Shown piece after piece: positions 21,401-60,018 of a stretch of DNA of 64,000 nt. Both the position numbers and the translations under genes were made by a program. The DNA lies in contig NC_088645.1 in NCBI RefSeq assembly GCF_964019385.1, positions 9,744,266-9,808,265 of the forward strand, in the 5' to 3' direction. Position 1 is the stretch's first letter. The number at the start of each line of letters is the position of its first letter. The notes under the pieces are model-generated. The model saw nothing but the letters and a program-made list of their open reading frames with translations. It made no database searches and was not told where the DNA came from. This DNA comes from Sycon ciliatum. Taxonomy: Eukaryota > Porifera > Calcarea > Leucosolenida > Sycettidae.

Positions 21401-24400
21401 TATTGCCGAGTACAGTGAAGTGATGGGATTTGTCACTGGGTACAAGGTGAGTGGAAGAGCATGTCAATTTGCAGTACTTGTACATATTTCGGAAGTTACT
21501 TTATCTTGGTGGAATCATCTAGAACGCCCTCAAGAAGAAACCCATAGTGATAATACAAAGAAAACCAGAATGACTAAGATGTTTTTGGAAAGATGTAATT
21601 GAAGACCTGACAGTACAATTTAGAATCTGCCTGGATACTTCCTGCAATTTTATTCTTGATAATATATTATGTTCCTGAAGAGGGTCCAAGTCAAAACTTG
21701 TGAAGATGAAACTTGTCTATCTTTATGCTTCGTTGTTCCGCTGAGAGCGCGTGGTTGTGACGAGTGACGAGTGTGGTGGCCTTACGAAAATAAATCAACC
21801 ACTGCCAATAATGCCTATAGGCGGTAAATATACACAAGCCAAGCCAAAATTGGGGAGAGTATATGCATTTCTAGACATGCTCGCTGGCCTGGAAATCTCT
21901 ATGTGGCAAAGTGCTCTACCTCTCTCACTGCCATCATGGGTTTGCGCCTTGCACATGTCGATGCATGAGTAGAGATATCCAGAATAGCATGTTGGTATAT
22001 AATGAAGCCCTTCAAGTACAGACAATGAAACAACAGTTACTATAGACTCGAATGGAAGATGTGTTGGGTCAAGGCAGTACTTATTACAAACAATCACTTT
22101 GCTCTTCAGCTGAGTCTATAAAATACTTTACCTTAGTGCTTTCTTTGCTCCATCATCCTTGTTCCAAAATTGCGATCAATTTACATTGTTCTGTTCTTAA
22201 TTAAATAATGCATTCGTGATATTGTCTAATCAGTTGGTGCTGTTGGTTGACATTCTAATTATTGTCTAATTATTGTCGCCTAGCCGCCTCTCTAATTAAT
22301 TCGTTGGAAGTAGGATTGTTAAAAATAAATATAAAGTAAGTGGATGTAGATACAACAAGAGAGCTTGAAAGCTTAGGGACCTCGCTATGCTTTTTGCCTG
22401 GGTTATCATACATGTTATTCGAACTGATTGAAACGTTTTTGCAATACAATGATATAATAGCCGTGGTTGGCTATAAAAACCCTGCAATCTCCACGCAAAG
22501 TGGTCATTGGCTACCCCAGCCATGTAACGGAATTGCTTGGAATAAAATAAAATAAATAAAATCGTAAGTTAGAGAAATAACACTAAGAGCAACAGCAGTG
22601 AAATTTACAAGTGTGAATTTGAACAATCAAAGCGAAAAATGAACAAAGGAGAAAGGAAGGAAAGACAACGTGATAACACATAACAGCAGTACATTACACC
22701 TAGAACATTAACGGCCGAGCTTGGCCGCACTAAACACGACACTGTCATTTATTGCTATTATAAAATTGTCGTCTCCGCGTCGGTTATTTGCAATACAATG
22801 ATAAAAAATATAAATCCGCCCGCCATCCCCATTTTTCTGAAAACAGGACGATCATGACATACATGTACATGTATTCCCTGGCTTGGCCCAACATGGGATT
22901 CGAACTCGCACTATCGCCCTGCATGCATTTCCCCGATACTTTTCGCATATACACACTTTCTTCCAAGTTGCTTCACGTGTCTTGCTGATGAATCCTCTAT
23001 ATGAATAAGGACGGTGGCCAGCTGTCTTTTACGAAATTAGAGGCACCATGCCATGCACTGCTCTTTTCTCTCCGAAACTCAACACTTGCAAGCCAGATAT
23101 GAAAGAAAGAAAAAGCATCAGTCCCACCACCGGGACTCGAACCAGGGACCTTGCTATTCGTGAGCAATGCTCTAACCAACTGAGCTACAGTATGACTCTT
23201 ATCCACAGTGATGGTAAATCTTTCCTTCTTCCATTCTTCTTCGAAGAAGGATATATTTACCAACACTGTGGATAGCAGTGGATAAGATTCATACTGTAGC
23301 TCAGTTGGTTAGAGCATTGCTCGAAGAAGAATAGATAGGAGTCATACTGTAGCTCAGTTGGTCGGAGCATTGCGCGCGAATAGCAAAGTCCCTGGTTCGA
23401 GTCCCGGTGGTGGGACTGATGATTTTTTCTTTCTTTCATATCTGGCTTGCAAGTGTTGAGTTTCGGAGAGAAAAGAGCAGTACGTGGCATGTGGCCTCTA
23501 ATTTCCTAATACTTTGAAATTCTCCGTGAAGTTCAAATTGGAAAATGAAATTTGCATTAATTGATTTGCTCACAGTGGACATAGTTTAATGCGCTCCCCA
23601 TGATATCAAGCGAATGGCCGAGGGCCCTCTTGATTGGTGTGAGTTGCCAGTATAATGCAAGCCAGATATGTATTGATCGAAGAAGGATAGATTTCCCATC
23701 ACTGTGGATAAGAGTCATACTGTAGCTCAGTTGGTTAGAGCATTGCTCGCGAATAGCAAGGTCCCTGGTTTGAGTCCCGGTGTTGGGACTGATGATTTTT
23801 TCTTTCTTTCATATCTGGCTTGCAAGTGTTCAGTTTCGGAGAGAAAAGAGCAGTACGTGGCATGTGGCCTCTAATTTCCTAATACTTTGAAATTCTCCGT
23901 GAAGTCCAAATTGGAAATTGCAATTTGCATTTGCTCGCAGTGGACATAGTTTGATGCACTCCCCATGATATCAAGCAAATGGCCGAGGGCCCTCTTGATT
24001 GGTGTGAGTTTCCAGTATGATGCAAGCCAGATATGGATTGATGGAAGAAGGATTATTTACCATCACTGTGGATAAGAGTCATACTGTGGCTCAGTTGGTT
24101 AGAGCATTGTTCGCGAATAACAAGGTCCCTGGTTCGAATCCCGGTGGTGTGGCTGATGATTTTTTTCTTTCTTTCATATCTGGCTTGCAAGTGTTGAGTT
24201 TCGGAGAGAAAAGAGCAGTACGTGGCATCAAGAGTACATTATAGCAATAAAAACTGCTTTATGGCAGTTTTCTAAAAAAGGTTATTGTGTTCTAGTCCAT
24301 GGACCCCGTCTAAAAAGTAAGAATGTAACGAAATGTGATAGCCGAAAATTAAAATTTCACACAAAACCTCACAATAATCACAACACTTGAAATGCTGCTT

Positions 24401-27400
24401 TCAACACTAAACTTGTACTGCACCAACAATTGGCAACATGCATGTCATGCATGCATAGGAAAGAGGATCACGAGGGGAAAAGGTCTTCTACATGTAGCTT
24501 TTCATTCTGTGTGTGATTATTGTGAGGTTTTGTGTGAAATTTTTAATTTTCGGCTATCACATTTCATTAATTTCTTACTTTTTAGACGGGTTCCATGGAC
24601 TAGAACACAATAACTTTTTTTAGAAAACTGCCATAAAGCAGTTTCAATTGCTATAATTTCTTTTGTTTTTTTCTGTCACCAATCAATGGAATGCCCTACA
24701 GTAGAGTCGCGCGCTGAAGAAGTTAGAACGTGGAGCCCAAGAACGTCCAGCTTGAAATTCTAAGAACGCCTCAGCCTAAATCTAAGAACGGCGGTGTTGG
24801 TTTTCTGGCAGCTTATGGGATACATATCATCCAGGACGAATTGTTTCTAAGATTGCTGACAAAATAAGAACATCCCAGTCTAACCCCTTGGAAACAACCT
24901 TCTTGGGCACGCGACTACAGTGTACATGTATATCAATATGTAAATGATGGCCTTCACATCATATCAATACCGTATTATACGCATTGATGTGCAAGCCTTT
25001 TCTTGCAGAAAATGGCACTAGCATGTTCTTCTGCGGGGAAACATGTGAGTAGTGGTGGACCGTGGTGATACTTTTTTTATACGGAGGTCATTCTGTGCAT
25101 ATTGCTGTAGCAGAATTTCATGACTCTGTCATAAAATTGTCTTGCCTTTCAGATATTTCAGATTTCCCCACCCTCGATCAGATTTATTTGAGAAATGTAA
25201 CCAGGTGCTTGTCGCAGATGTTTTTGTTGATTCTGTGTTTATAATGGTTTATAATCATGGGTTTTGGGTGCATCATATTGCACTGAAATCGTAATCCTGT
25301 TGATGTCGATACAACTTTTGGAAGTAGTTCAATGACTTCAAACTGTTAGTCCACGATTTTCTAAAACAACAAAGCAAAGGAGGAACAATAAACATGTATT
25401 AAAATGTAAAAGAATACATTGCTGAGTCGGACACCTCGTTCCAACAACTCCACTGATCCTGAGGATAAAAGGGGCAAGGCTATGGTTGGAGGTATTGAGA
25501 GATGAACAAGACACTCCATAATAATAAAATCTTAACACAACATCTTTTGGTGAGTATGAATGATATCCAGTCGAACCTCTTTAGGACGAACACCAAGGGA
25601 CCGATGGTATTTATTCTGTGAGTTTGTCTTAACCTATTTTATAACCAGCGAATACAATTATTTCTCGAACGGACATACGAATAGATTTCTTCTACAGCAA
25701 AAGATTCTAAGCCACACCAACTCATTGACTCGTCTCATATGAAACAAATGGGTCACAAGAGAGGTTCTGCAAAACGAAAATGCGTACAAACTTTCGCCCT
25801 ACATCATGAAGTGCGAAACTTCGCACGAACTTTCGCAACTTTGGACGCGAAACTTGCAGGGAACGCGAAATGAACTGTCGTAGGAAATTTCGTGAGATCG
25901 GGTCGCGAAAACTACGAAAATGTGCAGAACGCAAAGTTCGTGCAAAAATTCGTACACACTTTCGCAAGGACAGTCGCGAAACTTCGTTCGAATTTTCGTT
26001 TTGCAGAACCTCTCTACTGAACCTTTCTTTAGCAACATGGCGGCAACTGAAACAGCAACAGAGAAAGTACGATACATGTACAGCACATTCTTGCAGGTAC
26101 TACAAACAGATTGCAGATCGTATTTCTTGCTTTGGCGGCACGAAACTTTATTTGGGGCAGTGCAATCTCGGCGGTACTCACAAATAATAAATCAAACAGC
26201 CCAGACTCGAGTAAACAAATCCAATCATACAAGTACTAGATCTTCACGAGACGAGACTGCACCCATTGGCTAGTTTCGTATGAAGCAAACAAGTTTACTG
26301 AACCTCTCCACAATGGAGATTTTCCCTGATATGCGAATTTATTTTGCAAACTCGGTCAATGGGTCCTTGAACCTTTCCCTCCAGATTGGGAACTGCCAAC
26401 GATAGTATGCCACTGACCAGTGCCTTACTTGTAACGTACCAATGTACAATGAATACGAGTATTTCGACAACACATCTAACATTATGTCCTACCGTCAAGA
26501 AGTTGAACTCGCGTTCTTCGCACACTGTAGACAAGGGCAAAGAGATAAAAATGGATCTAAATCCGAATAAAATCAGCACACGTTTCCGTAAATGAAAGGG
26601 TGAGCATAAGCAAATGAATCGAAGGAAACCGGTCAGCTCAGAGATCACCTGTCATCGAGTATTCCGTAAAAGGAGGCCTCGGCAGCGGAAAAGCTAAATT
26701 TAGAAAAGAGATCCTGTCAGCTTTTCCATTATTTATTGCATTCCGCCAACAATCAGCACACTTTTCGTAAATGAAAGAGTCAACACAAGCAAATGAATCA
26801 AAGGGAACTGGTCAACTCACCTGTCATTGAGTAACCGCGAAAGGAGGTCTCAGCAGCGCCGAAACGAAATAAGCCAGGCCAGGAGACGAAATATCCGAAA
26901 CAGCTCAAACAAGAAGCAGTTCCAAAGAAGGAAGTTCCTCACGCATGCACATCCGAACACGGACTGTACTGCAACACAATGCCTGCCGTGCACGTGCACA
27001 GCACGCGGCTACCACTCGTTGGTAGATCTAATACTGAGCACCTTACGTAGAGACTTACGTAGCCTAAGTGAAATACCGAGCACCTTACGTAGAAACATAC
27101 GTAGCATAGCGGTGTCCTTTTTCTTGCCATGTGAACACAATAATGACTAAGATGTTTTTGGAAAGATGTAATTGAAGACCTGACAGTACAATTTAGAATC
27201 TGCCTGGATACTTCCTGCAATTTTATTCTTGATAATATATTATGTTCCTGAAGAGGGTCCAAGTCAAAACTTGTGAAGATGAAACTTGTCTATCTTTATG
27301 CTTCGTTGTTCCGCTGAGAGCGCGTGGTTGTGACGAGTGACGAGTGTGGTGGCCTTACGAAAATAAATCAACCACTGCCAATAATGCCTATAGGCGGTAA

Positions 27401-30400
27401 ATACACACAAGCCAAGCCAAAATTGGGGAGAGAATATGCATTTCTAGACATGCTCTCTGGCCTGGAAATCTCTATGTGGCAAAGTGCTCTACCTCTCTCA
27501 GTACCATCATGGGTTCGCGCCTTGCACATGTTGATGCATGACTAGAGATATCCAGAATAGCATGTTGGTACACAATGAAGACCTTCACGTATAGACAATG
27601 AAACAACAGTTACTATAGACCCGAATGGAAGATGTGTTGGGTCAAGGCAGTACTTATTACAAACAATCACTTTGCTCTTCAGCTGAGTCTATAAAATACT
27701 TTACCTTAGTGCTTTCTTTGCTCCATCATCCTTGTTCCAAAATTGCGATCAATTTCCATTGTTCTGTTCTTAATTAAATAATGCATTCGTGATATTGTCT
27801 AATCAGTTGGTGCTGTTGGTTGACATTCTAATTATTGTCTAATTATTGTCGCCTAGCCGCCTCTCTAATTAATTCGTTGGAAGTAGGATTGTTAAAAATA
27901 AATATAAAGTAAGTGGATGTAGATACAACAAGAGAGCTTGAAAGCTTAGGGACCTCGCTATGCTTTTTGCCTGGGTTATCATACATGTTATTCGAACTGA
28001 TTGAAACGTTTTTGCAATACAATGATATAATAGCCGTGGTTGGCTATAAAAACCCTGCAATCGCCACGCAAAGTGGTCATTGGCTACCCCAGCCATGTAA
28101 TGGAATTGCTTGGAATAAAATAAAATAAATAAAATCCTAAGTTAGAGAAATAACACTAAGAGCAACAGCAGTGAAATTTACAAGTGTGAATTTTAACAAT
28201 CAAAGCGAAAAATGAACAAAGGAGAAAGGAAGGAAAGACAACGTGATAACACATAACAGCAGTACATTACACCTAGAACATTAACGGCCGAGCTTGGCCG
28301 CACTAAACACGACACTGTCATTTATTGCTATTATAAAATTGTCGTCTCCGCGTCGGTTATTTGCAATACAATGATAAAAAATATAAATCCGCCCGCCATC
28401 CCCATTTTTTCTGAAAACAGGACGATCATGACATACATGTACATGTATTCCCTGGCTTGGCCCAACATGGGATTCGAACTCGCACTATCGCCCTGCATGC
28501 ATTCCCCCGATACTTTTCGCATATACACACTTTCTTCCAAGTTGCTTCACGTGTCTTGCTGATGAATCCTCTATATGAATAAGGACGGTGGCCAGCTGTC
28601 TTTTACGAAATTAGAGGCACCATGCCATGCACTGCTCTTTTCTCTCCGAAACTCAACACTTGCAAGCCAGATATGAAAGAAAGAAAAAGCATCAGTCCCA
28701 CCACCGGGACTCGAACCAGGGACCTTGCTATTCGTGAGCAATGCTCTAACCAACTGAGCTACAGTATGACTCTTATCCACAGTGACGGTAAATCTATCCT
28801 TCTTCCATTCTTCTTCGAAGAAGGATATATTTACCAACACTGTGGATAGCAGTGGATAAGATTCATACTGTAGCTCAGTTGGTTAGAGCATTGCTCGAAG
28901 AAGAATAGATAGGAGTCATACTGTAGCTCAGTTGGTCGGAGCATTGCGCGCGAATAGCAAAGTCCCTGGTTCGAGTCCCGGTGGTGGGACTGATGATTTT
29001 TTCTTTCTTTCATATCTGGCTTGCAAGTGTTGAGTTTCGGAGAGAAAAGAGCAGTACGTGGCATGTGGCCTCTAATTTCCTAATACTTTGAAATTCTCCG
29101 TGAAGTTCAAATTGGAAAATGAAATTTGCATTAATTGACTTGCTCACAGTGGACATAGTTTAATGCGCTCCCCATGATATCAAGCAAATGGCCGAGGGCC
29201 CTCTTGATTGGTGTGAGTTGCCAGTATGATGCAAGCCAGATATGGATTGATGGAAGAAGGATAGATTTCCCATCACTGTGGATAAGAGTCATACTGTGGC
29301 TCAGTTTGTTAGAGCATTGTTCGCGAATAGCAAGGTCCCTGGTTCGAATCCCGGTGGTGTGGCTGATGATTTTTTTCTTTCTTTCATATCTGGCTTGCAA
29401 GTGTTGAGTTTCGGAGAGAAAAGAGCAGTACGTGGCATCAAGAGTACATTATAGCAATAAAAACTGCTTTATGGCAGTTTTCTAAAAAAGGTTATTGTGT
29501 TCTAGTCCATGGACCCCGTCTTAAAAATAAGAATTTAACGAAATGTGACACAAAACCTCACAATAATCACAACACTTGAAATGCTGCTTTCAACACTAAA
29601 CTTGTACTGCACCAACAATTGGCAACATGCATGTCATGCATGCATAGGAAAGAGGATCACGAGGGGAAAAGGTCTTCTACATGTAGCTTTTCATTCTGTG
29701 TGTGATTATTGTGAGGTTTTGTGTGAAATTTTTAATTTTCGGCTATCACATTTCATTAATTTCTTACTTTTTAGACGGGTTCCATGGACTAGAACACAAT
29801 AACTTTTTTTAGAAAACTGCCATAAAGCAGTTTCAATTGCTATAATTTCTTTTGTTTTTTTTCTGTCACCAATCAATGGAATGCCCTACAGTAGAGTCGC
29901 GCGCTGAAGAAGTTAGAACGTGGAGCCCAAGAACGTCCAGCTTGAAATTCTAAGAATGCCTCAGCCTAAATCTAAGAACGGCGGTGTTGGTTTTCTGGCA
30001 GCTTATGGGATACATACATGTATCATCCAGGACGAATTGTTTCTAAGATTGCTGACAAAATAAGAACATCCCAGTCTAACCCCTTGGAAACAACCTTCTT
30101 GGGCACGCGACTACAGTGTACATGTATATCAATATGTAAATGATGGCCTTCACATCATATCAATACCGTATTATACGCATTGATGTGCAAGCCTTTTCTT
30201 GCAGAAAATGGCACTAGCATGTTCTTCTGCGGGGAAACATGTGAGTAGTGGTGGACCGTGGTGATACTTTTTTTATACGGAGGTCATTCTGTGCATATTG
30301 CTGTAGCAGAATTTCATGACTCTGTCATAAAATTGTCTTGCCTTTCAGATATTTCAGATTTCCCCACCCTCGATCAGATTTATTTGAGAAATGTAACCAG

Positions 30401-33400
30401 GTGCTTGTCGCAGATGTTTTTGTTGATTCTGTGTTTATAATGGTTTATAATCATGGGTTTTGGGTGCATCATATTGCACTGAAATCGTAATCCTGTTGAT
30501 GTCGATACAACTTTTGGAAGTAGTTCAATGACTTCAAACTGTTAGTCCACGATTTTCTAAAACAACAAAGCAAAGGAGGAACAATAAACATGTATTAAAA
30601 TGTAAAAGAATACATTGCTGAGTCGGACACCTCGTTCCAACAACTCCACTGATCCTGAGGATAAAAGGGGCAAGGCTATGGTTGGAGGTACTGAGAGATG
30701 AACAAGACACTCCATAATAATAAAATCTTAACACAACATCTTTTGGTGAGTATGAATGATATCCAGTCGAACCTCTTTAGGGCGAACACCAAGGGACCGA
30801 TGGTATTTATTCTGTGAGTTTGTCTTAACCTATTTTATAACCAGCGAATACAATTATTTCTCGAACGGACATACGAATAGATTTCTTCTACAGCAAAAGA
30901 TTCTAAGCCACACCAACTCATTGACTCGTCTCATATGAAACAAATGGGTCACAAGAGAGGTTCTGCGAAACGAAAATGCGTACAAACTTTCGCCCTACAT
31001 CATGAAGTGCGAAACTTCGCACGAACTTTCGCAACTTTGAACGCGAAACTTGCAGGGAACGCGAAATGAACTGTCGTAGGAAATTTCGTGAGATCGGGTC
31101 GCGAAAACTACGAAAATGTGCAGAACGCAAAGTTCGTGCAAAAATTCGTACACACTTTCGCAAGGACAGTCGCGAAACTTCGTTCGAATTTTCGTTTTGC
31201 AGAACCTCTCTACTGAACCTTTCTTTAGCAACATGACGGCAACTGAAACAGCAACAGAGAAAGTACGATACATGTACAGCACATTCTTGCAGGTACTACA
31301 AACAGATTGCAGATCGTATTTCTTGCTTTGGCGGCACGAAACTTTATTTGGGGCAGTGCAATCTCGGCGGTACTCACAAATAATAAATCAAACAGCCCAG
31401 ACTCGAGTAAACAAATCCAATCATACAAGTACTAGATCTTCACGAGACGAGACTGCACCCATTGGCTAGTTTCGTATGAAGCAAACAAGTTTACTGAACC
31501 TCTCCACAATGGAGATTTTCCCTGATATGCGAATTTATTTTGCAAACTCGGTCAATGGGTCCTTGAACCTTTCCCTCCAGATTGGGAACTGCCAACGATA
31601 GTATGCCACTGACCAGTGCCTTACTTGTAACGTACCAATGTACAATGAATACGAGTATTTCGACAACACATCTAACATTATGTCCTACCGTCAAGAAGTT
31701 GAACTCGCGTTCTTCGCACACTGTAGACAAGGGCAAAGAGATAAAAATGGATCTAAATCCGAATAAAATCAGCACACGTTTCCGTAAATGAAAGGGTGAG
31801 CATAAGCAAATGAATCGAAGGAAACCGGTCAGCTCAGAGATCACCTGTCATCGAGTATTCCGTAAAAGGAGGCCTCGGCAGCGGAAAAGCTAAATTTAGA
31901 AAAGAGATCCTGTCAGCTTTTCCATTATTTATTGCATTCCGCCAACAATCAGCACACTTTTCGTAAATGAAAGAGTCAACACAAGCAAATGAATCAAAGG
32001 GAACTGGTCAACTCACCTGTCATTGAGTAACCGCGAAAGGAGGTCTCAGCAGCGCCGAAACGAAATAAGCCAGGCCAGGAGACGAAATATCCGAAACAGC
32101 TCAAACAAGAAGCAGTTCCAAAGAAGGAAGTTCCTCACGCATGCACATCCGAACACGGACTGTACTGCAACACAATGCCTGCCGTGCACGTGCACAGCAC
32201 GCGGCTACCACTCGTTGGTAGATCTAATACTGAGCACCTTACGTAGAGACTTACGTAGCCTAAGTGAAATACCGAGCACCTTACGTAGAAACATACGTAG
32301 CATAGCGGTGTCCTTTTTCTTGCCATGTGAACACAATAATAGAAAAGCTGACAGGATCGCTTTTCTAAATAACCCCAAGAGTGTGCAACTCCAGCTATGG
32401 GGTCGGCGACGGCAGAAGTTCACATCACGTGATGAACCCGTACACATTATTTGCACTCTGTGCATGATAGATACTGGGTTGTACGCAGCCCAGCTTTGGG
32501 GTACAACCAGGGAGTCGTAAAATACCGGGAGGCGACACGCCACACATTTCACGATCCGAGGATTGCTGCACTCGACCCGCGAAATTTGATGCGTGATTGA
32601 AACGTCGTCGTCATCTTCTTTTTCTCAATTGTTTTTGCTATGCTTCGAGGCCTATTCTGGATCTCCAGAGCGAAAGCTGGTTGTTTCTGATACGTACCAC
32701 GCATTACCTTAGGTTGAGCCGTGGCTTTTAATTTTTTGGGAAGTTCACTGCTTTGGAGACGACGGAATGTCAAGGTAAGTTATTCACGAAATGTACTCAA
32801 ATTTGAATTGAGTAAGTGCGAATGACACCCTGTTTTCGGAATAGTTCTCCACTAAACACACCATGCCCATGACCCCTTCATGTTGTCCAAGTTCCATTCT
32901 CGGTTTGTGTGAAGTTTCGAGATGAAGATCGATGATGTACTCACCTTTCCATGGAAGGGAAAAAAATAGCATATCAAACAGAATGCAGCATTTGATGCCA
33001 CTATCCTCATTTTTCTGCATTCAAAGTGTTTCACATTATGGTCCATGAACTACACACAATATTTGTCATTTCTTAACTGTTCATAGCTGTTCATACTTGA
33101 AGTAACTGTGTTCTGAACACATTGCCTTCAGGAAACGTAAGGCCGAGTCGCCTGACCGACTGAGCAAAGTTCTCTGCGACGAATGTCACACTATCGGCAA
33201 ATGCACTCAAGGCGAATACCCGTGAATACCCTGTATACTGCTTGATCCACTTATCACAGAAGCATACACACACACGCACGCACACACATACCATGCATAC
33301 GCCCGTCGCAAGAGAAGAACGCAAGTCTGCAAATGCACTGGATGTGCACCCACAGATTTTCTCTTATAGCAACGATAGCGAACAAGATTTGAATGAGACA

Positions 33401-36400
33401 GATCAAGACTTGCACCAGATAACTGTATAATCCACACAACTGGCAAAGCCATGTGAATCGACCACCGATGCACAACACAAACATACACCTTTGGATGCCC
33501 ATTGCTCCGTGCAATGACAGCGTTAGGAGTTGCAGTATTTCCTGTGGCGAGTTAGATCATTGGGCCGACGGAAGTCCCTGCCACAGCCGCAAATGAACAC
33601 TCTAGGCTTTGGCACAGCCGCACACATATACACACACACACACACATACACACACACACACACACACACATACACACACACGCATGCTCGTGCAACATTC
33701 ACATGTCACTGCCTCAGTTGTTTTTAGCTTTGTCATATTGTGTCTTATACAGAGCTTCACTTTGGGAAAAGCTGTTGAGATGCTGGAGAGCACTTGTTGC
33801 CATGCTTGCGAAATGCCAGCACCATTGCATGCCTTCAGCTGGCACACTTCCTGGCGTAGCAGGTTTCCAAAACCTGATGCCTTGTGTAACTGTGTCCTAA
33901 TAACATGCAGGAATGACTCCATCGCATCAGTAACACTCGCCTGTCTCATTGTCAGCAGTTCGCAAATTCCATGGATTATTTCACCTTCCATAGGCCTGTA
34001 CACCGTGGTGGCACTGCCACTCTTACATGGATCTGCACATAGGCAAAGCAAGGGTTGAGGGCGGAGGTTTACATATAATGTCAACAATTTACATACTAGG
34101 TACACACGTAATATTCAGGACATGAATAAAATAATATCCTGTCACAGTTTCAACACTGTCACATGTCATAGTGAACAGACAATGCACCGTGGGCAGACTC
34201 CCATTTTTCGGGTGAGTTTGGGGCGCTTAGTATGCTACAGATTATACATTCGTGTTCACAAGGACAAGACGAGACCAAAAAATGACGAGAGAATCTCACC
34301 AGTAGTCCACAGCTGAACATCTCCACAACTCAGGTCACCAAGTGGATACGTGGCGTCATCTACATCTTCCACGGTGGACTCATCACTTTGGCAGGCATCT
34401 CTGTCAAGCTCCATCATCCTTTACTCCGTCAAGGCACAAACTTAGAATCACCAAATCAACTGCTGACACTCGGACGATTCCTTGGGAGCAGGATTATTTT
34501 TTGGATTTCTCATCAGATGCATTGGGAGATGTTGGGAGATGAGACTGAGGACGAGGTTGCGGTTGTTGGAGACGAGGAATCAGATGGTGATTGTGATCGT
34601 AAGAAGTCTGCCGTTTTTCTTCACTTGTTGTCTCACCCGAAGTGTCTGCAGGTGCATCTGCCGGTGTATGATGATTTTAGTTTTTCTGTTCTTTGTCGTG
34701 CACGGTATGCTAGTCAGTTGAAAGTACTTGAGGCTGTTTGTATTCGTTTGCATAAGCCTGATCTTTGTAAGCAGAAGAAACATGTAGTTGCGTTAAAATT
34801 GTTTTCGTAGGTGTACAGCATGATTGTTGGTCTCACTACACAGTTTTAGCGTTATAATTATTAGTTTCTCACCCGCCGTTGCACTTAGCTCGTACTTCAC
34901 TTCTATTGTCTCACCTTCCCTCATTATTATTATTTTTTTTTACAAGAAGTCGGAGGCGGATAATACTTTAATAACGAAGGTACGTGTTGGGTCGTAAGTA
35001 TCCACGCAAACACACATCCAGTCAAAATAAGGCACTGCGTCGGGAAGGGTTACGCGAAGCCAAGTAAAAATACGGACTGGTGAGGACGCACGTACAACGA
35101 CAACGGAAGTGACAACAACAGTCAATATTCGAAAACGTGGTAGACCGCGAAAACGAACCTCAATATCGAACACCGGACAAGTTGGAGTAAGAAGATCAAT
35201 AGAAATCCGCAATGGAGGAGACGTAGCTGAAAGGACACTGGGCATCGCGCACACAACGGCTAGTGTCAGAAAACGTGGAAGGCCGCGGAAAAGCAAAGAG
35301 ACGGATAGTGGTGATGCCGCGAAGAGGCGAGATGACGGGACATTGGAGGAGACAACACCCAACGGAGCTAAGAATCGCACTTCGTCCATCAAGCAACATC
35401 TGTCAGCCCGTACCAATTGTCGTGAGTTGTACAGTGATAATGTGTTCTCAATAGTGTCACGTGGTAGATGTGCGTTGCATCTGGCTGTGTTAGAAGCTTT
35501 GTATATCCGTAAGTTAGATCCTGAACTTTGCGTATCGAAAGAAAATGTGTTTTCGCTACAATTGTTTGGTGTTACTCCTCGTCGAGGTGTTAACAATGTA
35601 ACTTAATTTGTTCACTATGTTCTTGTCACTATTATTATTTCCTTCGAGTTTTGTGTCGTGCTGAACTTGATAATTTTCCACCTTGTCACGAGTGTTGTTA
35701 TCTCATATTTTTACGCTATATAAGTTTTAGTCTTTCCAACTTGAGCCATTCCCTGTATAATCCTTGATGAGAAGGGACCGAAAACGTTCGGATACTTTGA
35801 CAAGTGCTTTATTTTGACTCTCCTCCTCACTTGCATCGACCTGCGTTGCCTTCACGTCAGTCGTCGTCCTTTCCGATTGTTTCCTTTGTATTTTTATTTT
35901 TACCGTGAATTCATAGGTCCGGTTGTAATCTGCTGTAGATCTCCGTGGTCTGTCATTTGCTGCTTTGTTTTGTGGATTAGTTGTTGTTGTTGTTGGATGT
36001 GAACCTGGGCGACGACTGACGTGAAGGCAACGGCATTCAGGGTTGACGTGGGTGGTGAAGGTGAGACGCAGGACGATGCAAGTGAGGAGGAGAGTCAAAC
36101 CGCGGTGGATGACGGAGCAGGTTCTGATTCCGACAGTGAGGGAGAAGGTGAGCTGAGTGAGGGTGAGAGTGAGTGTGAGGGTGTGCGCGTGAGTCGAGAT
36201 TGTGTGCGTCCGTCTCGTAATAACAAGTCTTCAGTATACAATCATTTGGTTTCTAGTACTGACTGTTGTCGTACTTATTCTGATTCCTGTTTTTCTGTTT
36301 TGTGCCGTGCTCGTCATGGTTATCTTTTGCAATTACAAGTTTTGGAAGCTGTTTGTCAGCGCATTCATAAGCCGAATTTGTGTGTCCAGAAAGATAGTGT

Positions 36401-39400
36401 TATTACCCTAAAATTGTTCAAATAATGTTCTGTTGTGTAGTGTGGCAACGTTGTTGCCACTTGTGCCTAAATGTGTATTATTATTATTATTATTACGAAG
36501 TCTGAAGAAAACGTTGAACGGTCTCTGCTTGGTTGACGACTACACCATAGCTCAGCGGTTAGAGCATCGCTGGCTACAAGCGAGGGTCCCTGGTTCGAGT
36601 CCTGGTGGTGACAGTCAATTTTTTCTTCAGACTTTTCCCGTTTGTCTCTTTCCCTCAAAAGCAGTCAATATTATTATTATTATTATTATTATTATTGTGG
36701 ACTATGGCTAGTGCCAGACGTTACTGAAACGAGAGAGCTTGGAAGCTCAGGGCCCTAAGCTATGCTTTTTTGCCTTGATGACCTAGACAAAAAAGCATAG
36801 GGATGTTAATAAGTTTATACTTTTTGTTTTTTAGACATAACCTGGGATTCGAACCCGCACTATCGCCCTGCATGCATCCCCCGATACACTTCGCATACAT
36901 ACTAATTCTTCCAAGTTGCTTAACGTTATGATCTTGTATTTGAAAGCCCTATTTGAATATGCATTGTGGCCAGCCGCCTTTGATTGTACGGTACGGAACG
37001 GGACAGGTACGGGACAGGTACGGTCGAGGGTAATACGACACCGTCTACCACCTTGATGACGACAAAAAAAAGAAAAGGGATGTTATACATTTTTCAATTG
37101 TCCTATTTTTTTCAGGCATTACCTTGAATCCGAACCCGCGCTATCGCCCTACATGCATTCCCTCATACCCTTTGCATTCATACTCATTCTTCCAAGTTGC
37201 TTCACGTTATGATCTTGCGTTTGAAAGCCCTATTTGAATATTGCGGCCAGCTGTATGTGTCCAGCTGTGTTTGATGGTACGGTACGGTACGGGACACATA
37301 CAGGATAGCGCCAGGCGTGACACAAACACACAAACAAACAAACAAACACCAAATTAAAGCTGTGTGGACCCTGGCTAGCGCCAGACGCTACTGAAGTAAC
37401 GTCTTCTGCATAGCTACGGGAATAAAGCCCTTTGCATATTGGCATAGGTTGCATACATTACGGCCGTATGCCTAAGGACCGCAGTAATCGCACACCGAAC
37501 AAGTTCGGGCATGATCACGTCTTTTCTCCTGCAGACTGAATGCCTATTCAAGAATATCTTGCTGTCGACGCATCTTTTCACGAAGTCGGCGAGTCTGCGA
37601 ATGAGCATTACATTTGCTCTGTTTTTTTTTCTTGCTGTTGGCGTAGCCTTTCGCAAGCACGGAGACTCTCGAGGCGGTGGGACCTCTCTTCTCCCATCGT
37701 CGACTCTCTGTGTAGGCACTCCTGCCGACACCGTCTGCTCAGAGTTTCAACACTGTCACCTCTGGTATTTTGCTCTTTCTCATAGTCCTCTGGTAGTGAT
37801 CTCAGCACTCTACTATACAACAAACGCGCTTATTAAAACACTGCAATCTACCCGATCCTTACATTCCCAGCCCATTAGCAGCATACACAAAAACATTCCA
37901 ACGATAATGCGATAATGCGACACTGTAACCTTGATAACCCAAGCAAAAAAAGCATAGCGATGTTGGTAATTCACTTGTCCAGGCAATAAAGCAGTCTCTC
38001 TCTCTTTCTCTCGCTCTCTCTCTCTCTGGCGCTCTCTCTTTATCCGTCTCAATCTATCTATCTCTACCCTCTCATGATGCATGCGTCACACTCTCATGAA
38101 ATATTTCTCTTCTATTAAAGATTGCATGCTTCACACTCTCATGTTCTATTTCTTTCCTGTCTTCGTCTTTTTGTGAGAGCCTGGACAATCCACTTGCCCA
38201 GGCAAGAAGGCCCCAATGCCTGTGCATTTTGGCGATGTAGAATAAAATATACTAGCCAACCAACCATAGCAGACTCAGCGGAGGACATTTCGGTTGGTTG
38301 AAACTCTGAGTTTCATGCCGTTCGGCAATCATCAGACAACATCAGTTGTCTGATGATTGCCTAACGGCATGAAACTCAGAGTTACAACCAACCTGAACGT
38401 CCTCCGCTGAGTCTGCTATGTACTAAGCTCTGTCACTGACATTGAGCACTCTCTGCAGCTCGGGGATGAACGGATTTGTTCTAACCAACCAACCACGTAA
38501 TACTTTTTTATTTCTTCAATTTATTTTCATAACATTACATGGGATTTGAACCCGCACTATCGCCTTGCATGCATTCCCCAAAATACACTTCGCATACATT
38601 GTACATGCATATTCTTCCAAGTTGCTTCACGTTATGAATTTGCTGTTGAAAGCCGTATTTGAATAAGGTGGCCAGCTGTCTTTGATGACGACCTTGCGGT
38701 ACATGTACGGGGTAGCGCCCCTAGCTGTGTCACCTCACTCTCACCTGTGTGCACCCTGGGTAGCGCCAGACGTTCTTGAAGTAACGTCTTTTGCATAGCT
38801 ACGGGAATGAAAGAGCTTGGAAGCTCAGGGCCCTACGCTATGCTAGCGAGAGTCAACTTTCTCTTTGCATTCGAGGGTAATACGACGGCGCCGTCCACCA
38901 CCTTGATGACCTAGGAAAAAAAGCCTAGGATTCGAACCCGCACCATCGCCCTGCATGCATTCCTCCGATACACTTCGATGGCACAAACAAACAAACAAAC
39001 ACGAATTTAAAGCTGTGTGGACCCTGGCTAGCGCCAGACGTTACTGAAGTAACGTCTTTCGCATACCTAAGGGAATTAAATCATGCTGTGCACCATGTAC
39101 TCTTTGTTTATGTTGATCTCAGGATAAAACTATGGACGCATTCTTTTTCGCACGTCATGGCAATGCACAGTTGAATAGCTGGTACATGGACGGTATCTCT
39201 ATCACACATGGTTCTCCCATGCATCATGTATGGACCTACGCAGCTAGTTTCGATGACTATAAAGCAGTGTATCACTGTCCATGCAGTGCCCGACCCGGTC
39301 CATCACCTCCATCGTTTGTTGGTAGCCACTACTATTGCGCTGACAATGGCCATGCTCTGAGACGTTGGACTTTCACTCCAGCCAACCATGCATGGAGCAA

Positions 39401-57080: not shown

Positions 57081-57363
57081 AGGGTTGGGGAGCAAGAGAA
57101 CTAAATAAGAGAACTAAATAAAGTATGGTTGATAAATATGGTGGTAAAGACACACCTGGCAATATGGCTGTAAACACACGCCTGCCCACACACGCTCTCT
57201 AGGCTGCAAAGTTCTGGCACAGAGCTCTCCTCACCACCACCACCACCACCATCAGTTCGCGCCTGGCACCTGGTCGATGCATGGCTGGCGGTATCCGGCA
57301 TAGCAGGCTGGTACATCAAGTAGCGCATGGCACATAGATGATGACACAGCAACGACATAGCTC

Positions 57364-57407
57364 GATTGCGACGTACGTTTCGTCCCCGCTGGACTCATCA
57401 GGCAATC
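57364..57407 (-). ncRNA. Hammerhead ribozyme, unit 1
   Basis: Minus strand, 5' to 3': GATTGC (stem I), CTGATGA, GTCC-AGCGG-GGAC (stem II, four pairs), GAA, ACGT-ACGT (self-complementary stem III, no loop), C at the cleavage position, GCAATC (stem I partner, six perfect pairs). Every conserved core base is present, and the cleavage triplet is GUC. With a loopless stem III the ribozyme should act as a dimer, for instance in the tandem transcript. Confidence 0.88.
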
Positions 57408-57715
57408 TTCTTCTTGGATGTCTTCATACGGAGCTTGACTCGGGAGAATGAAGTCGAAGACACCACTGCAGCTGTACTTATGGTTGATAAATATGGTGGT
57501 AAAGACACACCTGGCAATATGGCGGTAAACACACGCCTGCCCACACACGCTCTCTAGGCTGCAAAGTTCTGGCACAGAGCTCTCCTCCCCACCACCACCA
57601 CCATCAGTTCGCGCCTGGCGCCTGGTCGATGCATGGCTGGCGGTATCCGGCATAGCAGGCTGGTACATCAAGTAGCGCATGGCACATAGATGATGACACA
57701 GCAACGACATAGCTC

Positions 57716-57759
57716 GATTGCGACGTACGTTTCGTCCCCGCTGGACTCATCAGGCAATC
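57716..57759 (-). ncRNA. Hammerhead ribozyme, unit 2
   Basis: Identical in sequence to the motif at 57364-57407, 352 bases downstream. Cleavage at both sites of a minus-strand transcript would release a 352-nt RNA. Confidence 0.88.
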
Positions 57760-58005
57760 TTCTTCTTGGATGTCTTCATACGGAGCTTGACTCGGGAGAA
57801 TGAAGTCGAAGACACCACTGCAGCTGTACTTATGGTTGATTATGGTGGTAAAGACACACCTGGCAATATCGCGGTAAACACACGCCTGCCCACACACGCT
57901 CTCTAGGCTGCAAAGTTCTGGTACAGAGCTCTCCTCACCACCACCACCACCATCAGTTCGCGCCTGGCGCCTGGTCGATGCATGGCTGGCGGTATCCGGC
58001 ATAGC

Positions 58006-58128
58006 TTTGCAGCCTAGAGAGCGTGTGTGGGCAGGCGTGTGTTTACTGCCATATTGCCAGGTGTGTCTTTACCACCATATTTATCAACCATAAGTACAGC
58101 TGCAGTGGTGTCTTCGACTTCATTCTAA
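58006..58128 (+). repeat. Inverted partial copy of the hammerhead repeat
   Basis: TTTGCAGCCTAGAGAGCGTG and following are the reverse complement of the unit's middle (for example 57831-57915), reaching the CTTCGACTTCATTCT block. It therefore sits head to head with unit 3 and lacks the ribozyme. Confidence 0.85.
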
Positions 58129-58245
58129 ATAAAGTATAATAAAAAATGAGAGAGAGGGAGAGAGAGCGAGCGGGGAGGGTTGGGGGCAAGAGAGGGGGAG
58201 AGAACTAAATAAAGTATAATTATATAATGCGTAAGGGGTGCACAT

Positions 58246-59617
58246 TCAGATCCAGAGAAAAGAGTAAGCAGGGCACGAGGCGTATGGCAATATGCAACAG
58301 TGTGTGAGCAGATGTGCATACATCTTACAAAGTGTCAGTGGCCCAGTGCCATTGCTTGGCACGGAGGTGCCGGAAGACAGACACTTTGAAACTTTGCAGC
58401 CGTTTCCGGTCAGGTGGCTGGCTGAGGACGGCGGGTGGCAGGGCATTTCATACAGGGACAGCACAGGCGGGGAAAGCTCTACGGCAACTTTCCCGGCTAT
58501 TGACAGGTAGCCCTGTCTCAAGCTGGTAGTTATGCATGTCGAGACGGACGAGAGAGAGACGAGTGGGTCGAACATGGGCTGGTCGGGGGCTTGAGAGGGA
58601 GGCAAGAGCTGACGAAGTGGGCTGGTAGGATTGGAGCACAGTAGCTTGTAAATGTAGGTACATGCAGCTACCATGCGACGGATAGACAGGCTTTGCAGCA
58701 TTGCGGCGGGGCCAATCAAGTGGAGGGCTGAGCGTTGCGTCTGGTCAAGTCGCTGCAAGTGACAATCTGCTGCGCCCATCCAGACCAATGGGCAGTACTC
58801 CATTACTGGGCGTACAAACCCACGGTACACTGTAGCTCGGCTGCGAGAATCCAGGAGAGGCGAGGCCTTCCGCAGGAGCCCGAGACGCTGGCGTGCTCTG
58901 ATGGCGATGGTATGGAGGTGGTTGCGGTGGGAAAGTTGGCTGTCCAAGGTTACCCCAAGAAGCTTGAGGTTACTCTCTCCATTCAGGGGGACACCCGCAA
59001 ACTGTACTGCTGGGAGGTCCAACGCTGATGGTCAATAGTCATGGCCTGGGACTTGGCTGGCTCGAACGCAATTCTCCAGCTGGTGCCCCAGTTCACAAGG
59101 GCATCGAGAGCATTTTGCAGGACTGTCGAGCTGTGGTCAATGGTATCCATGGTGGACATGCACTGAAACAGCGTTGTGTCGTCGGCATAAGCGGCCAGAT
59201 CTACACCTGGTGGAAGGTGGTCATCGGCATCGTTCGTGTAGAGGAGGAACAGTGTCGATCCCAACAAGCTACCTTCCGGAACACCGGCTGTGATGCGGTG
59301 TGGGCTGGACGACTGCACCTGGGTGGGAGACTCGATCGAACGCTCCAGCAATATCCACAGTAACAACCCGCACAGCTCTGCCCCCTGCAGCCACGGTACT
59401 CCAACGATGGTGTAGTAGGGTAAGGAGGTCCTGCGTTCCCAGGCCGGAGCGGAAGCCGTACTGCTTAGCGGTGAGGATGTGCCGGCGTTCAAGGAATCCC
59501 ATAAGGCTACGATTGATGATAGCTTCCATGATCTTTGACAGTAATGACAGCAGGGATATGGGTCGGTAGTTCTTTGTTGCGGACTTCGAACCCTTCTTGT
59601 GCACAGGTACAGGTAAC
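58246..59617 (-). mobile_element. LINE, 5'-truncated, related to 40015-42480
   Basis: Minus-strand frames give VPVHKKGSKSATKNYRPISL, SLLSKIMEAIINRSL, YGFRSGLGTQDLLTLLHHRW, VVTVDIAGAFDRVSHPGAVV (motif A), then AGVPEGSLLGSTLFLLYTND (motif B with changes), LAAYADDTTLFQC (motif C intact), KLLGVTLDSQLSHRNHL and RPVMEYCPLVWMGAADCHLQ. A 258-codon frame (59022-58246) covers the C-terminal part. Frames shift near 59320 and 59000. The 5' end joins the Helitron-like fragment at about 59617, where the paralogue at 37447 continues without a LINE. Confidence 0.9.
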
Positions 59618-60018
59618 GGCTGCATACATTACGGCCCTACGCCTAAGGACCGCAGTCACCGCACACCGAACAGTATCGGGCATGATCACGTCTTTTCTCC
59701 TGCCGACTGGATGCCTGTTCAGCGGTACTTTGCTGTCGATGCGTCTTTTCACGAAGTCGGCGAGTCTCCGAACGACGGGACATTTGCTCTGGTTTTTTCT
59801 TCTTGTTGTTGGCCTAGTCTTTCGCAAGCACGGCGACGCTCGAGGCGGCGGGACCTCTCTTCTTCCATCTTCGACTCTCTGTGAAGGCACTCCTGCCGAC
59901 ACCGTCTGCTCAGAGCTTCAACAGTGTTACCCCTGTCGTTTTTTCTCTTTCTCATAATCCTCTGAAATAGAGATTATTAGAATGATCTCAGCATTCTACT
60001 GTGCAACGACCACGCGCA
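59618..60018 (-). mobile_element. Helitron-like fragment, second copy (left part)
   Basis: Paralogous to 37447-37830. The minus frame 59955-59749 reads LSRRCRQECLHRESKMEEER, then RLERRRACERLGQQQEEKTR, preserved relative to the first copy. The right part continues at 62657 after the TTAA-flanked element. Confidence 0.42.

What the first reader, a model, noticed from the sequence alone, without database searches (positions are those of the whole stretch)
57124..58128. Retrozyme-like tandem repeat with consensus hammerhead ribozymes
Two ~352-bp tandem units each hold a minus-strand hammerhead with all core bases, a six-pair stem I, a four-pair stem II, a self-complementary stem III (ACGU/ACGU) and a GUC cleavage triplet. 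Such loopless stem III ribozymes are known to work as dimers, as in Penelope-like elements and retrozymes that spread via small circular RNAs. A third unit and an inverted part flank them. The unit itself has no similarity that I recognise, so it may be a new family.
Basis: partly seen in the sequence, partly recalled or inferred. Interest (0 to 1): 0.9.

Follow-up and report, generated by a model that had tools for sequence, protein, structure and literature searches.

The report
Retrozyme with Penelope-like insertion footprint
A small repeated DNA element that encodes a self-cutting RNA has spread through this genome, and its copies look as if one small circular RNA was copied into DNA from both sides of a chromosome break, in the manner of Penelope-type jumping genes.

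Summary
Two 352-nt units each carry a minus-strand type I hammerhead above Rfam's cut-off. The family is dispersed: 1261 ribozyme cores with up to 2 mismatches in the 538-Mb genome, 0 for the reversed pattern. It works like an animal retrozyme.

The flanking "inverted part" is the more telling feature. In 41 loci (40 fetched plus the window), 28 of 43 insertions are head-to-head and 0 tail-to-tail. Outer ends cluster at two RNA sites, A and B, 32-46 nt apart. In 20 of the 28 (two after allowing for later inserts) one end is A and the other B; none is A/A or B/B; 8 have one non-canonical end. All 20 have target duplications of at least 10 bp, against 0 of 380 mixed controls. Arms of one insertion share variants in 212 of 215 comparisons; two haplotypes occur in one insertion only, in both arms.

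Best reading: one RNA circle, reverse-transcribed from both target strands by Penelope-like machinery. A young Penelope-like element with head-to-head copies lives in this genome. No RNA evidence was available.

The parts
57114..57126 (.). Left copy of the 13-bp target-site duplication CTAAATAAAGTAT (its last 3 bases can also be aligned to the element)
57124..58126 (-). Whole retrozyme insertion: head-to-head array, outer end at site A (unit position 349) on the left and at site B (unit position 31) on the right
57124..57999 (-). Long arm: about 2.5 tandem 352-nt units, RNA sense on the minus strand, unit positions 349 down to 172 after two turns
57364..57407 (-). Type I hammerhead ribozyme, copy 1; predicted cleavage between 57370 and 57369
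   Evidence: RF00163, 35.4 bits; cleavage position by the recalled GUC rule
57716..57759 (-). Type I hammerhead ribozyme, copy 2; predicted cleavage between 57722 and 57721, 352 nt from the first
   Evidence: RF00163, 35.4 bits; cleavage position by the recalled GUC rule
58000..58126 (+). Short opposite arm, RNA sense on the plus strand, unit positions 262-352 then 1-31, with the roughly 31-nt tail beyond site A; no hammerhead in it
58125..58137 (.). Right copy of the 13-bp target-site duplication (its first 2 bases can also be aligned to the element)

Best explanation
This is a non-autonomous retroelement that works like an animal retrozyme. Inferred from known retrozymes, not shown here: a minus-strand transcript of an array cuts itself at each hammerhead and the 352-nt monomer is closed into a circle. 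Supported here by the anatomy of many insertions: the circle is reverse-transcribed at a staggered break in AT-rich DNA. The 3' end of one target strand primes at site A (unit 340-352), that of the other strand at site B (unit 26-40), 32-46 nt further 3' on the RNA. Both cDNAs run round the same circle, giving anything from a fraction of a unit to many units, and stop at unrelated points; their ends are then joined. The product is a head-to-head array between target duplications of mostly 11-15 bp. The enzyme is most likely that of a resident endonuclease-bearing Penelope-like element. Because one circle offers each start site once, one end is A and the other B (inference).
For: Two hammerheads above cut-off in a dispersed family (1261 cores, 0 control). 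28 of 43 insertions head-to-head, 0 tail-to-tail. 20 of 28 A/B, 0 A/A, 0 B/B (18 as first scored; L015 and L024 after allowing for later inserts). If the two ends chose independently, at most half would be A/B, so 20 of 20 has a chance of at most about 1e-6 (windows for A and B set after seeing the data). Target duplications of 10 bp or more in 20 of 20 against 0 of 380 mixed flank pairs. Same variants in both arms: 212 agree, 3 disagree; arms of different insertions 3931 and 1750; 0 of 20000 arm permutations as concordant. Haplotypes found genome-wide only in one insertion, in both arms: L028 17 exact matches (3 and 14 per strand), L030 9 (8 and 1). Inner ends of the two arms never within 18 nt in 27 of 27 and 1 of 62 inner ends near the cleavage site, 1.9 expected. 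In vitro a Penelope-like protein extends both target strands and starts at two adjacent internal RNA sites that define the optional tail (PMC11167929). A resident young Penelope-like element forms head-to-head pairs too.
Against: No RNA data: transcription, cutting and circles are unseen. In the Anolis Penelope study hammerhead mutants still inserted, unprocessed RNA was the main substrate, and no reads ended at the cleavage site (PMC11167929), so a circle is not needed by that enzyme. That study found no difference in start site between the two strands. 8 of 28 head-to-head insertions have a non-canonical outer end and 15 of 43 insertions have one orientation only. Some insertions differ more between arms than most (L043 6.9%, L009 4.3%, L015 3.0%). 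The genome-wide haplotype searches used exact patterns of 34 and 39 bases, so copies with a neighbouring change would be missed, and L038's haplotype had one match elsewhere. No sequence shared with Penelope-like elements beyond the ribozyme core was found, and both domain matches of the Penelope-like frame are below Pfam's cut-offs. The A-site stem-loop is no more stable than shuffles.
Confidence: 0.6

Rival explanations
1. Same Penelope-like machinery, but the template is an uncut linear multimer transcribed from a homogeneous array; the ribozyme plays no part in insertion.
For: In vitro, uncut RNA is the main substrate of the Anolis Penelope protein and hammerhead mutants still insert (PMC11167929). 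Many arrays are homogeneous, so their transcripts would be too.
Against: L028's deletion and L030's haplotype are in every unit that could be matched (17 and 9, both arms) and nowhere else in the assembly by exact pattern; a multimer would need a lost or unassembled homogeneous source for each. 119 of 142 units that span the hammerhead keep it intact, though loci were partly chosen by that motif.
Confidence: 0.18
2. Two separate RNA circles, one per target strand, both from the same source unit.
For: Penelope protein is predicted to act as a dimer (PMC11167929); identical circles from one source would give matching arms.
Against: Free choice of start site on two RNAs predicts A/A and B/B insertions; 0 of 20 seen. 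Arms match even for haplotypes found in no other insertion.
Confidence: 0.1
3. A LINE moves the element and the inverted part is a twin-priming 5' inversion.
For: LINE reverse-transcriptase fragments are common around the copies and next to the window's copy (RVT_1 in 58983-59636). Retrozyme authors allow LINEs as an alternative (PMC7229834).
Against: As recalled, twin priming leaves the outer 5' end at varying sites; here both outer ends are at fixed sites (20 of 28). Transcripts would be expected to start at their 3' end, not at an internal fixed pair of sites.
Confidence: 0.05
4. Snap-back self-priming on one cDNA or on an antisense RNA makes the inverted arms, as was suggested for Adineta Penelope elements.
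For: Proposed from palindromes at inverted junctions of Penelope elements (PMC3846280 discussion).
Against: A snap-back joins the arms at the same unit position; here the inner ends differ by 19-162 nt in 27 of 27, and by 17 nt in the partly held L002/L005 locus.
Confidence: 0.03
5. Ordinary satellite DNA homogenised by recombination, or an assembly fold-back artefact.
For: Tandem arrays with lower divergence within an arm (0.8%) than between loci (2.7%).
Against: Dispersed short arrays, each between target duplications and with fixed ends; later unit-specific mutations were not homogenised. Artefacts would not give exact target duplications at 20 different sites.
Confidence: 0.03

Closest known systems
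Metazoan non-LTR retrozymes (Cervera and de la Pena 2020, PMC7229834; parts 1-4 of 6 read)
   Same: Type I hammerhead in each unit of short tandem repeats (published range 150-450 bp, here 352), dispersed copies, target duplications longer than 4 bp, coexistence with Penelope-like elements; the authors already proposed target-primed reverse transcription of a circle by a LINE or Penelope-like enzyme.
   Different: Unit G+C is 52.8% against their below 50%. The parts that I read do not mention head-to-head inverted arrays, paired A/B ends or a shared template for two arms. Expression as circles is not known here.
Endonuclease-bearing Penelope-like elements (PMC11167929 parts 1-2 of 4; PMC3846280 passages and discussion)
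   Same: Head-to-head inverted copies, a short optional tail on one inverted end, two adjacent internal start sites, AT-rich targets, a hammerhead with an ATG in its CUGAUGAG core.
   Different: The element here encodes no reverse transcriptase or endonuclease and shares no detected sequence with the Penelope-like regions at hand beyond the core.
Plant LTR retrozymes (PMC4918200, search listing only; features as summarised in PMC7229834)
   Same: Ribozyme-made circular RNA as the proposed intermediate.
   Different: Type III hammerheads in LTRs and 4-bp target duplications.
Schistosoma W-elements and amphibian hammerhead satellites (PMC8490949 passages; PMC7229834)
   Same: Tandem repeats with type I hammerheads.
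   Different: No head-to-head layout is mentioned in the passages that I saw.

Membership tests
Metazoan non-LTR retrozyme | Type I hammerhead in the repeat unit | tested here: met
   RF00163 above cut-off in both full units
Metazoan non-LTR retrozyme | Short tandem repeats of 150-450 bp in multiple copies | tested here: met
   Period 352; dispersed arrays
Metazoan non-LTR retrozyme | Target duplications longer than 4 bp when present | tested here: met
   10 bp or more in 20 of 20 A/B insertions; 0 of 380 mixed controls
Metazoan non-LTR retrozyme | G+C below 50% (descriptive trait in PMC7229834) | tested here: not met
   Unit 52.8%, window array 54.0%, window 44.8%
Metazoan non-LTR retrozyme | Contacts between loops of stems I and II | tested here: inconclusive
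   A distal GACAT/ATGTC helix could make an internal loop; no covariation test was made
Metazoan non-LTR retrozyme | Expressed as linear and circular monomers | not testable with these tools
   No RNA data
Metazoan non-LTR retrozyme | No LTRs, primer-binding site or polypurine tract | not tested
   None noticed; not searched for
Penelope-like element | Encodes reverse transcriptase and GIY-YIG endonuclease | tested here: not met
   The unit holds only short frames; not a Penelope-like element itself
Penelope-type insertion footprint | Head-to-head arms with a tail on one arm only | tested here: met
   20 of 28 head-to-head insertions A/B, 0 A/A, 0 B/B, 8 non-canonical at one end
Penelope-type insertion footprint | Start site in an AC-rich stem-loop | tested here: inconclusive
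   Site A lies in an AC-rich loop of a predicted hairpin, but the fold is no better than shuffles (z -0.49 and -0.08)

The most novel reading that the evidence does not exclude
A single ribozyme-born RNA circle serves as template for both 3' ends of one chromosome break: one primes at site A, the other at site B, and two cDNAs run round the same circle. Retrozymes of this kind would be satellites of Penelope-like elements, and the Penelope rule of a tail on one side only would mean that both strands prime on one RNA molecule.
Probability: 0.55. Interest if true: 0.87.

Novelty: new variant of a known kind. Interest (0 to 1): 0.74.

Why it matters
Which enzyme moves animal retrozymes is open: in 2020 Penelope-like elements were named as a strong candidate (PMC7229834), and a review said that the repeats show no motif from which the partner could be deduced (PMC7761336 passages). 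Here the insertion anatomy points to Penelope-type priming of both target strands, and variants shared by both arms point to one template molecule. It also offers a testable reason for the one-sided tail of Penelope elements. In my literature searches (in an open-access library only) I saw no paper that joins retrozymes with head-to-head insertions; beyond the papers named I saw listings only.

Tried and rejected
LINE twin priming, snap-back priming, linear cut monomers and satellite homogenisation were weighed and judged less likely (see the rivals). Folding of the whole unit (z +1.24) and of the A/B region showed no excess stability, so no structural claim is made. The 5' side of one endonuclease-bearing frame (L049, C1:2906200-2907400) held no hammerhead of this type and no similarity to the unit; the 3' region of the Penelope-like element in L040 likewise. 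The exact core gave 0 matches in viral contigs, and with a free loop 0 in prokaryote genome contigs; both tools may leave out the window's own genome. Seven further hammerhead-like candidates in L013 (three), L016, L019, L021 and L024 did not reach Rfam's threshold. The pattern for L040's variant held a base private to one unit and found only that unit; it is not used. A protein search in solved structures gave only weak reverse-transcriptase matches, best E 0.11. Two papers on Penelope hammerheads are not held. The organism was not identified.

Full report
Check of the observation. Rfam's Hammerhead_1 model matches the minus strand at 57407-57364 and 57759-57716, both 35.4 bits against a cut-off of 34. 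The array has period 352 over 57124-58005, with an inverted stretch at 58000-58126. A 13-bp direct repeat, CTAAATAAAGTAT, bounds the whole at 57114-57126 and 58125-58137, so array and inverted part most likely entered as one insertion.

Genome-wide. The window lies in a 538-Mb genome of 313 contigs. A search with the 1005-bp region gave 357 matches from 40 scored of 1396 candidates. The ribozyme core with up to 2 mismatches occurs 645+616 times and the reversed control 0+0. The repeat is a large dispersed family.

Sample. I analysed 40 fetched loci (L009-L048), chosen from the best matches and from the places listed on one chromosome, so not at random. With the window this gave 43 insertions of at least 300 bp of unit. 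L017 and L046 have the same flanks and are probably one event copied by duplication; both are in the 43 and 28, and only L017 in the variant and junction counts.

Architecture. 28 of 43 are head-to-head, 0 tail-to-tail, 15 of one orientation. In one search's printed places outside these loci I count by eye ten more head-to-head places and no tail-to-tail; that list is truncated. One of the ten is held in part as L002/L005: its left end is at B (unit 33) and its right end lies beyond the held DNA. Outer ends fall mostly at unit positions 340-352 (site A) or 26-40 (site B); these windows were set after looking. 18 of 28 head-to-head insertions are A/B as first scored. L015 was first scored A/A and L024 A/other, but in both an arm carries a later insert, beyond which it continues to site B and a matching target duplication. 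That makes 20 A/B, 0 A/A, 0 B/B, and 8 with one non-canonical end (L010, L017, L019, L020, L025, L031, L046, L048). Two of the 8, L019 and L025, pair B with a start near unit 322 and have target duplications; L048 pairs A with unit 137 at a target that matches the RNA over about 8 nt. Among one-orientation insertions, A ends outnumber B ends by my count (8 to 2), so equal use of the sites is not implied; the A/B excess holds all the more.

Target sites. All 20 A/B insertions have a direct repeat of at least 10 bp at the ends, 17 of them exact and three (L024, L033, L043) with one mismatch; 0 of 380 mixed pairs of flanks reach 10 bp. An earlier control with exact repeats from all insertions reached 10 bp in 2 of 399. 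Apart from L038 (25 bp, in a repetitive flank and ambiguous) they measure 10-18 bp. Targets with their flanks average 72% A+T over 27 insertions, against 52% in the DNA at hand.

One template. For this test 31 loci were used; nine decayed or rearranged ones (L010, L012, L017, L018, L020, L022, L026, L027, L047) and the duplicate L046 were left out, and unit positions 210-249 were masked. At 13 sites that vary between insertions, the two arms of one insertion agree in 212 comparisons and disagree in 3; arms of different insertions agree in 3931 and disagree in 1750. Sites are linked, so the fair test is to permute whole arms: 0 of 20000 permutations were as concordant. Mean divergence is 0.8% within an arm, 1.3% between arms of one insertion and 2.7% between insertions. 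Insertion-specific variants were then sought in the whole genome by exact pattern: L028's deletion has 17 matches, all in that insertion, 3 on one strand and 14 on the other; L030's haplotype 9, all in that insertion, 8 and 1; L038's 5 in one arm of its own insertion and 1 elsewhere. The simplest account is that the units of both arms were copied from one monomer. As the arrays run through the ribozyme's cleavage site, that monomer was probably closed into a circle. Inner ends do not gather at the cleavage site: 1 of 62 within 5 nt, 1.9 expected (seven one-orientation ends of decayed copies were left out). The two inner ends of an insertion are 19-162 nt apart in 27 of 27, and 17 nt in L002/L005, which argues against snap-back priming. 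No circle has been seen.

Ribozyme upkeep. 119 of 142 units spanning the hammerhead keep core and stems, but loci were partly chosen by the motif. Among per-insertion majority sequences 2 of 44 hammerhead positions vary, against 22 of 99 at 113-211 (seven of those are one deletion) and 1 of 28 at 41-68. Later mutations are also fewer in the hammerhead (0.26% against 0.42%), so this is weak evidence of selection.

Partner. A 703-aa stretch of open frame in L040 matches RVT_1 (E 3.4e-06) and GIY-YIG (E 0.003), both below Pfam's cut-offs; the pairing, and motifs that I recall, make it a Penelope-like element. Its relatives give 69 matches from 63 scored of 12959 candidates; 12 of them, the query's own place included, are at least 97% identical over query positions 6-703 with no stop inside. 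Head-to-head pairs are visible in that list on C9, C2 (two), C98 and C8, with no tail-to-tail pair within 5 kb among the places listed, and in L040 itself. In the window, 34923-35036 is inverted against 35037-35819 relative to L042; that this is Penelope-like rests on a weak GIY-YIG match in L042 and a recalled C-terminal motif. A separate GIY-YIG search gave 13 matches in the genome. In vitro, the Anolis Penelope protein cuts and extends both strands and starts at two adjacent internal sites that define the optional tail (PMC11167929, parts 1-2 of 4). In Adineta the tail is described on one of the inverted repeats and head-to-head as the commonest layout (PMC3846280, passages and discussion). 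The retrozyme's footprint is the same, so a Penelope-like enzyme is the most likely mover. Against this: no shared sequence beyond the core was found, and in the Anolis study cutting by the hammerhead was not needed for insertion.

Why always A with B. If each strand primed on its own RNA, A/A and B/B should occur. If both prime on one circle, each site can be used once, which gives A/B. The end rule and the genotype result support each other; this step is inference.

Filing. It works like a metazoan retrozyme. It departs from the published description in G+C (52.8%) and in the head-to-head A/B layout, so I rate it a new variant of a known kind. It is not itself a Penelope-like element.

Noticed in passing
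window 34923-36479: Two nested or adjacent Penelope-like relics with inverted halves: 34923-35036 against 35037-35819 (compared with L042) and 35844-36008 against 36007-36479 (compared with L013).
   Followed up: partly
L040 1435-1874 and 6918-7354; L042 2375-4794; L029 3371-4501: Retrozyme arrays sit inside or beside Penelope-like elements in three of the fetched loci; in L040 and L042 the Penelope-like host copy is itself inverted.
   Followed up: partly
G000 C10:3712499-3712562: The one exact copy elsewhere of the haplotype that marks the L038 insertion; a possible source unit that could not be fetched.
   Followed up: no
L013:218(+), L016, L019, L021, L024 (minus strand): Hammerhead-like motifs of other sequence, some downstream of TATA-like boxes, L019 and L021 alike; below Rfam's threshold.
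   Followed up: partly
G000 C1:69381583-69457005 (L026, L027): Hammerhead cores, mostly in pairs about 345-352 bp apart, recur every 6-25 kb on one strand, beside a 988-aa frame in L026; older retrozyme copies seem to be carried in a larger amplified unit.
   Followed up: no
window 23122-36610: Five tRNA-model hits with nearly the same sequence, one inside a 373-bp tandem repeat at 23334-24228; probably tRNA-derived SINEs.
   Followed up: no
window 58246-59636(-): Two frames of a LINE-like reverse transcriptase directly beside the retrozyme; RVT_1 in 58983-59636.
   Followed up: no
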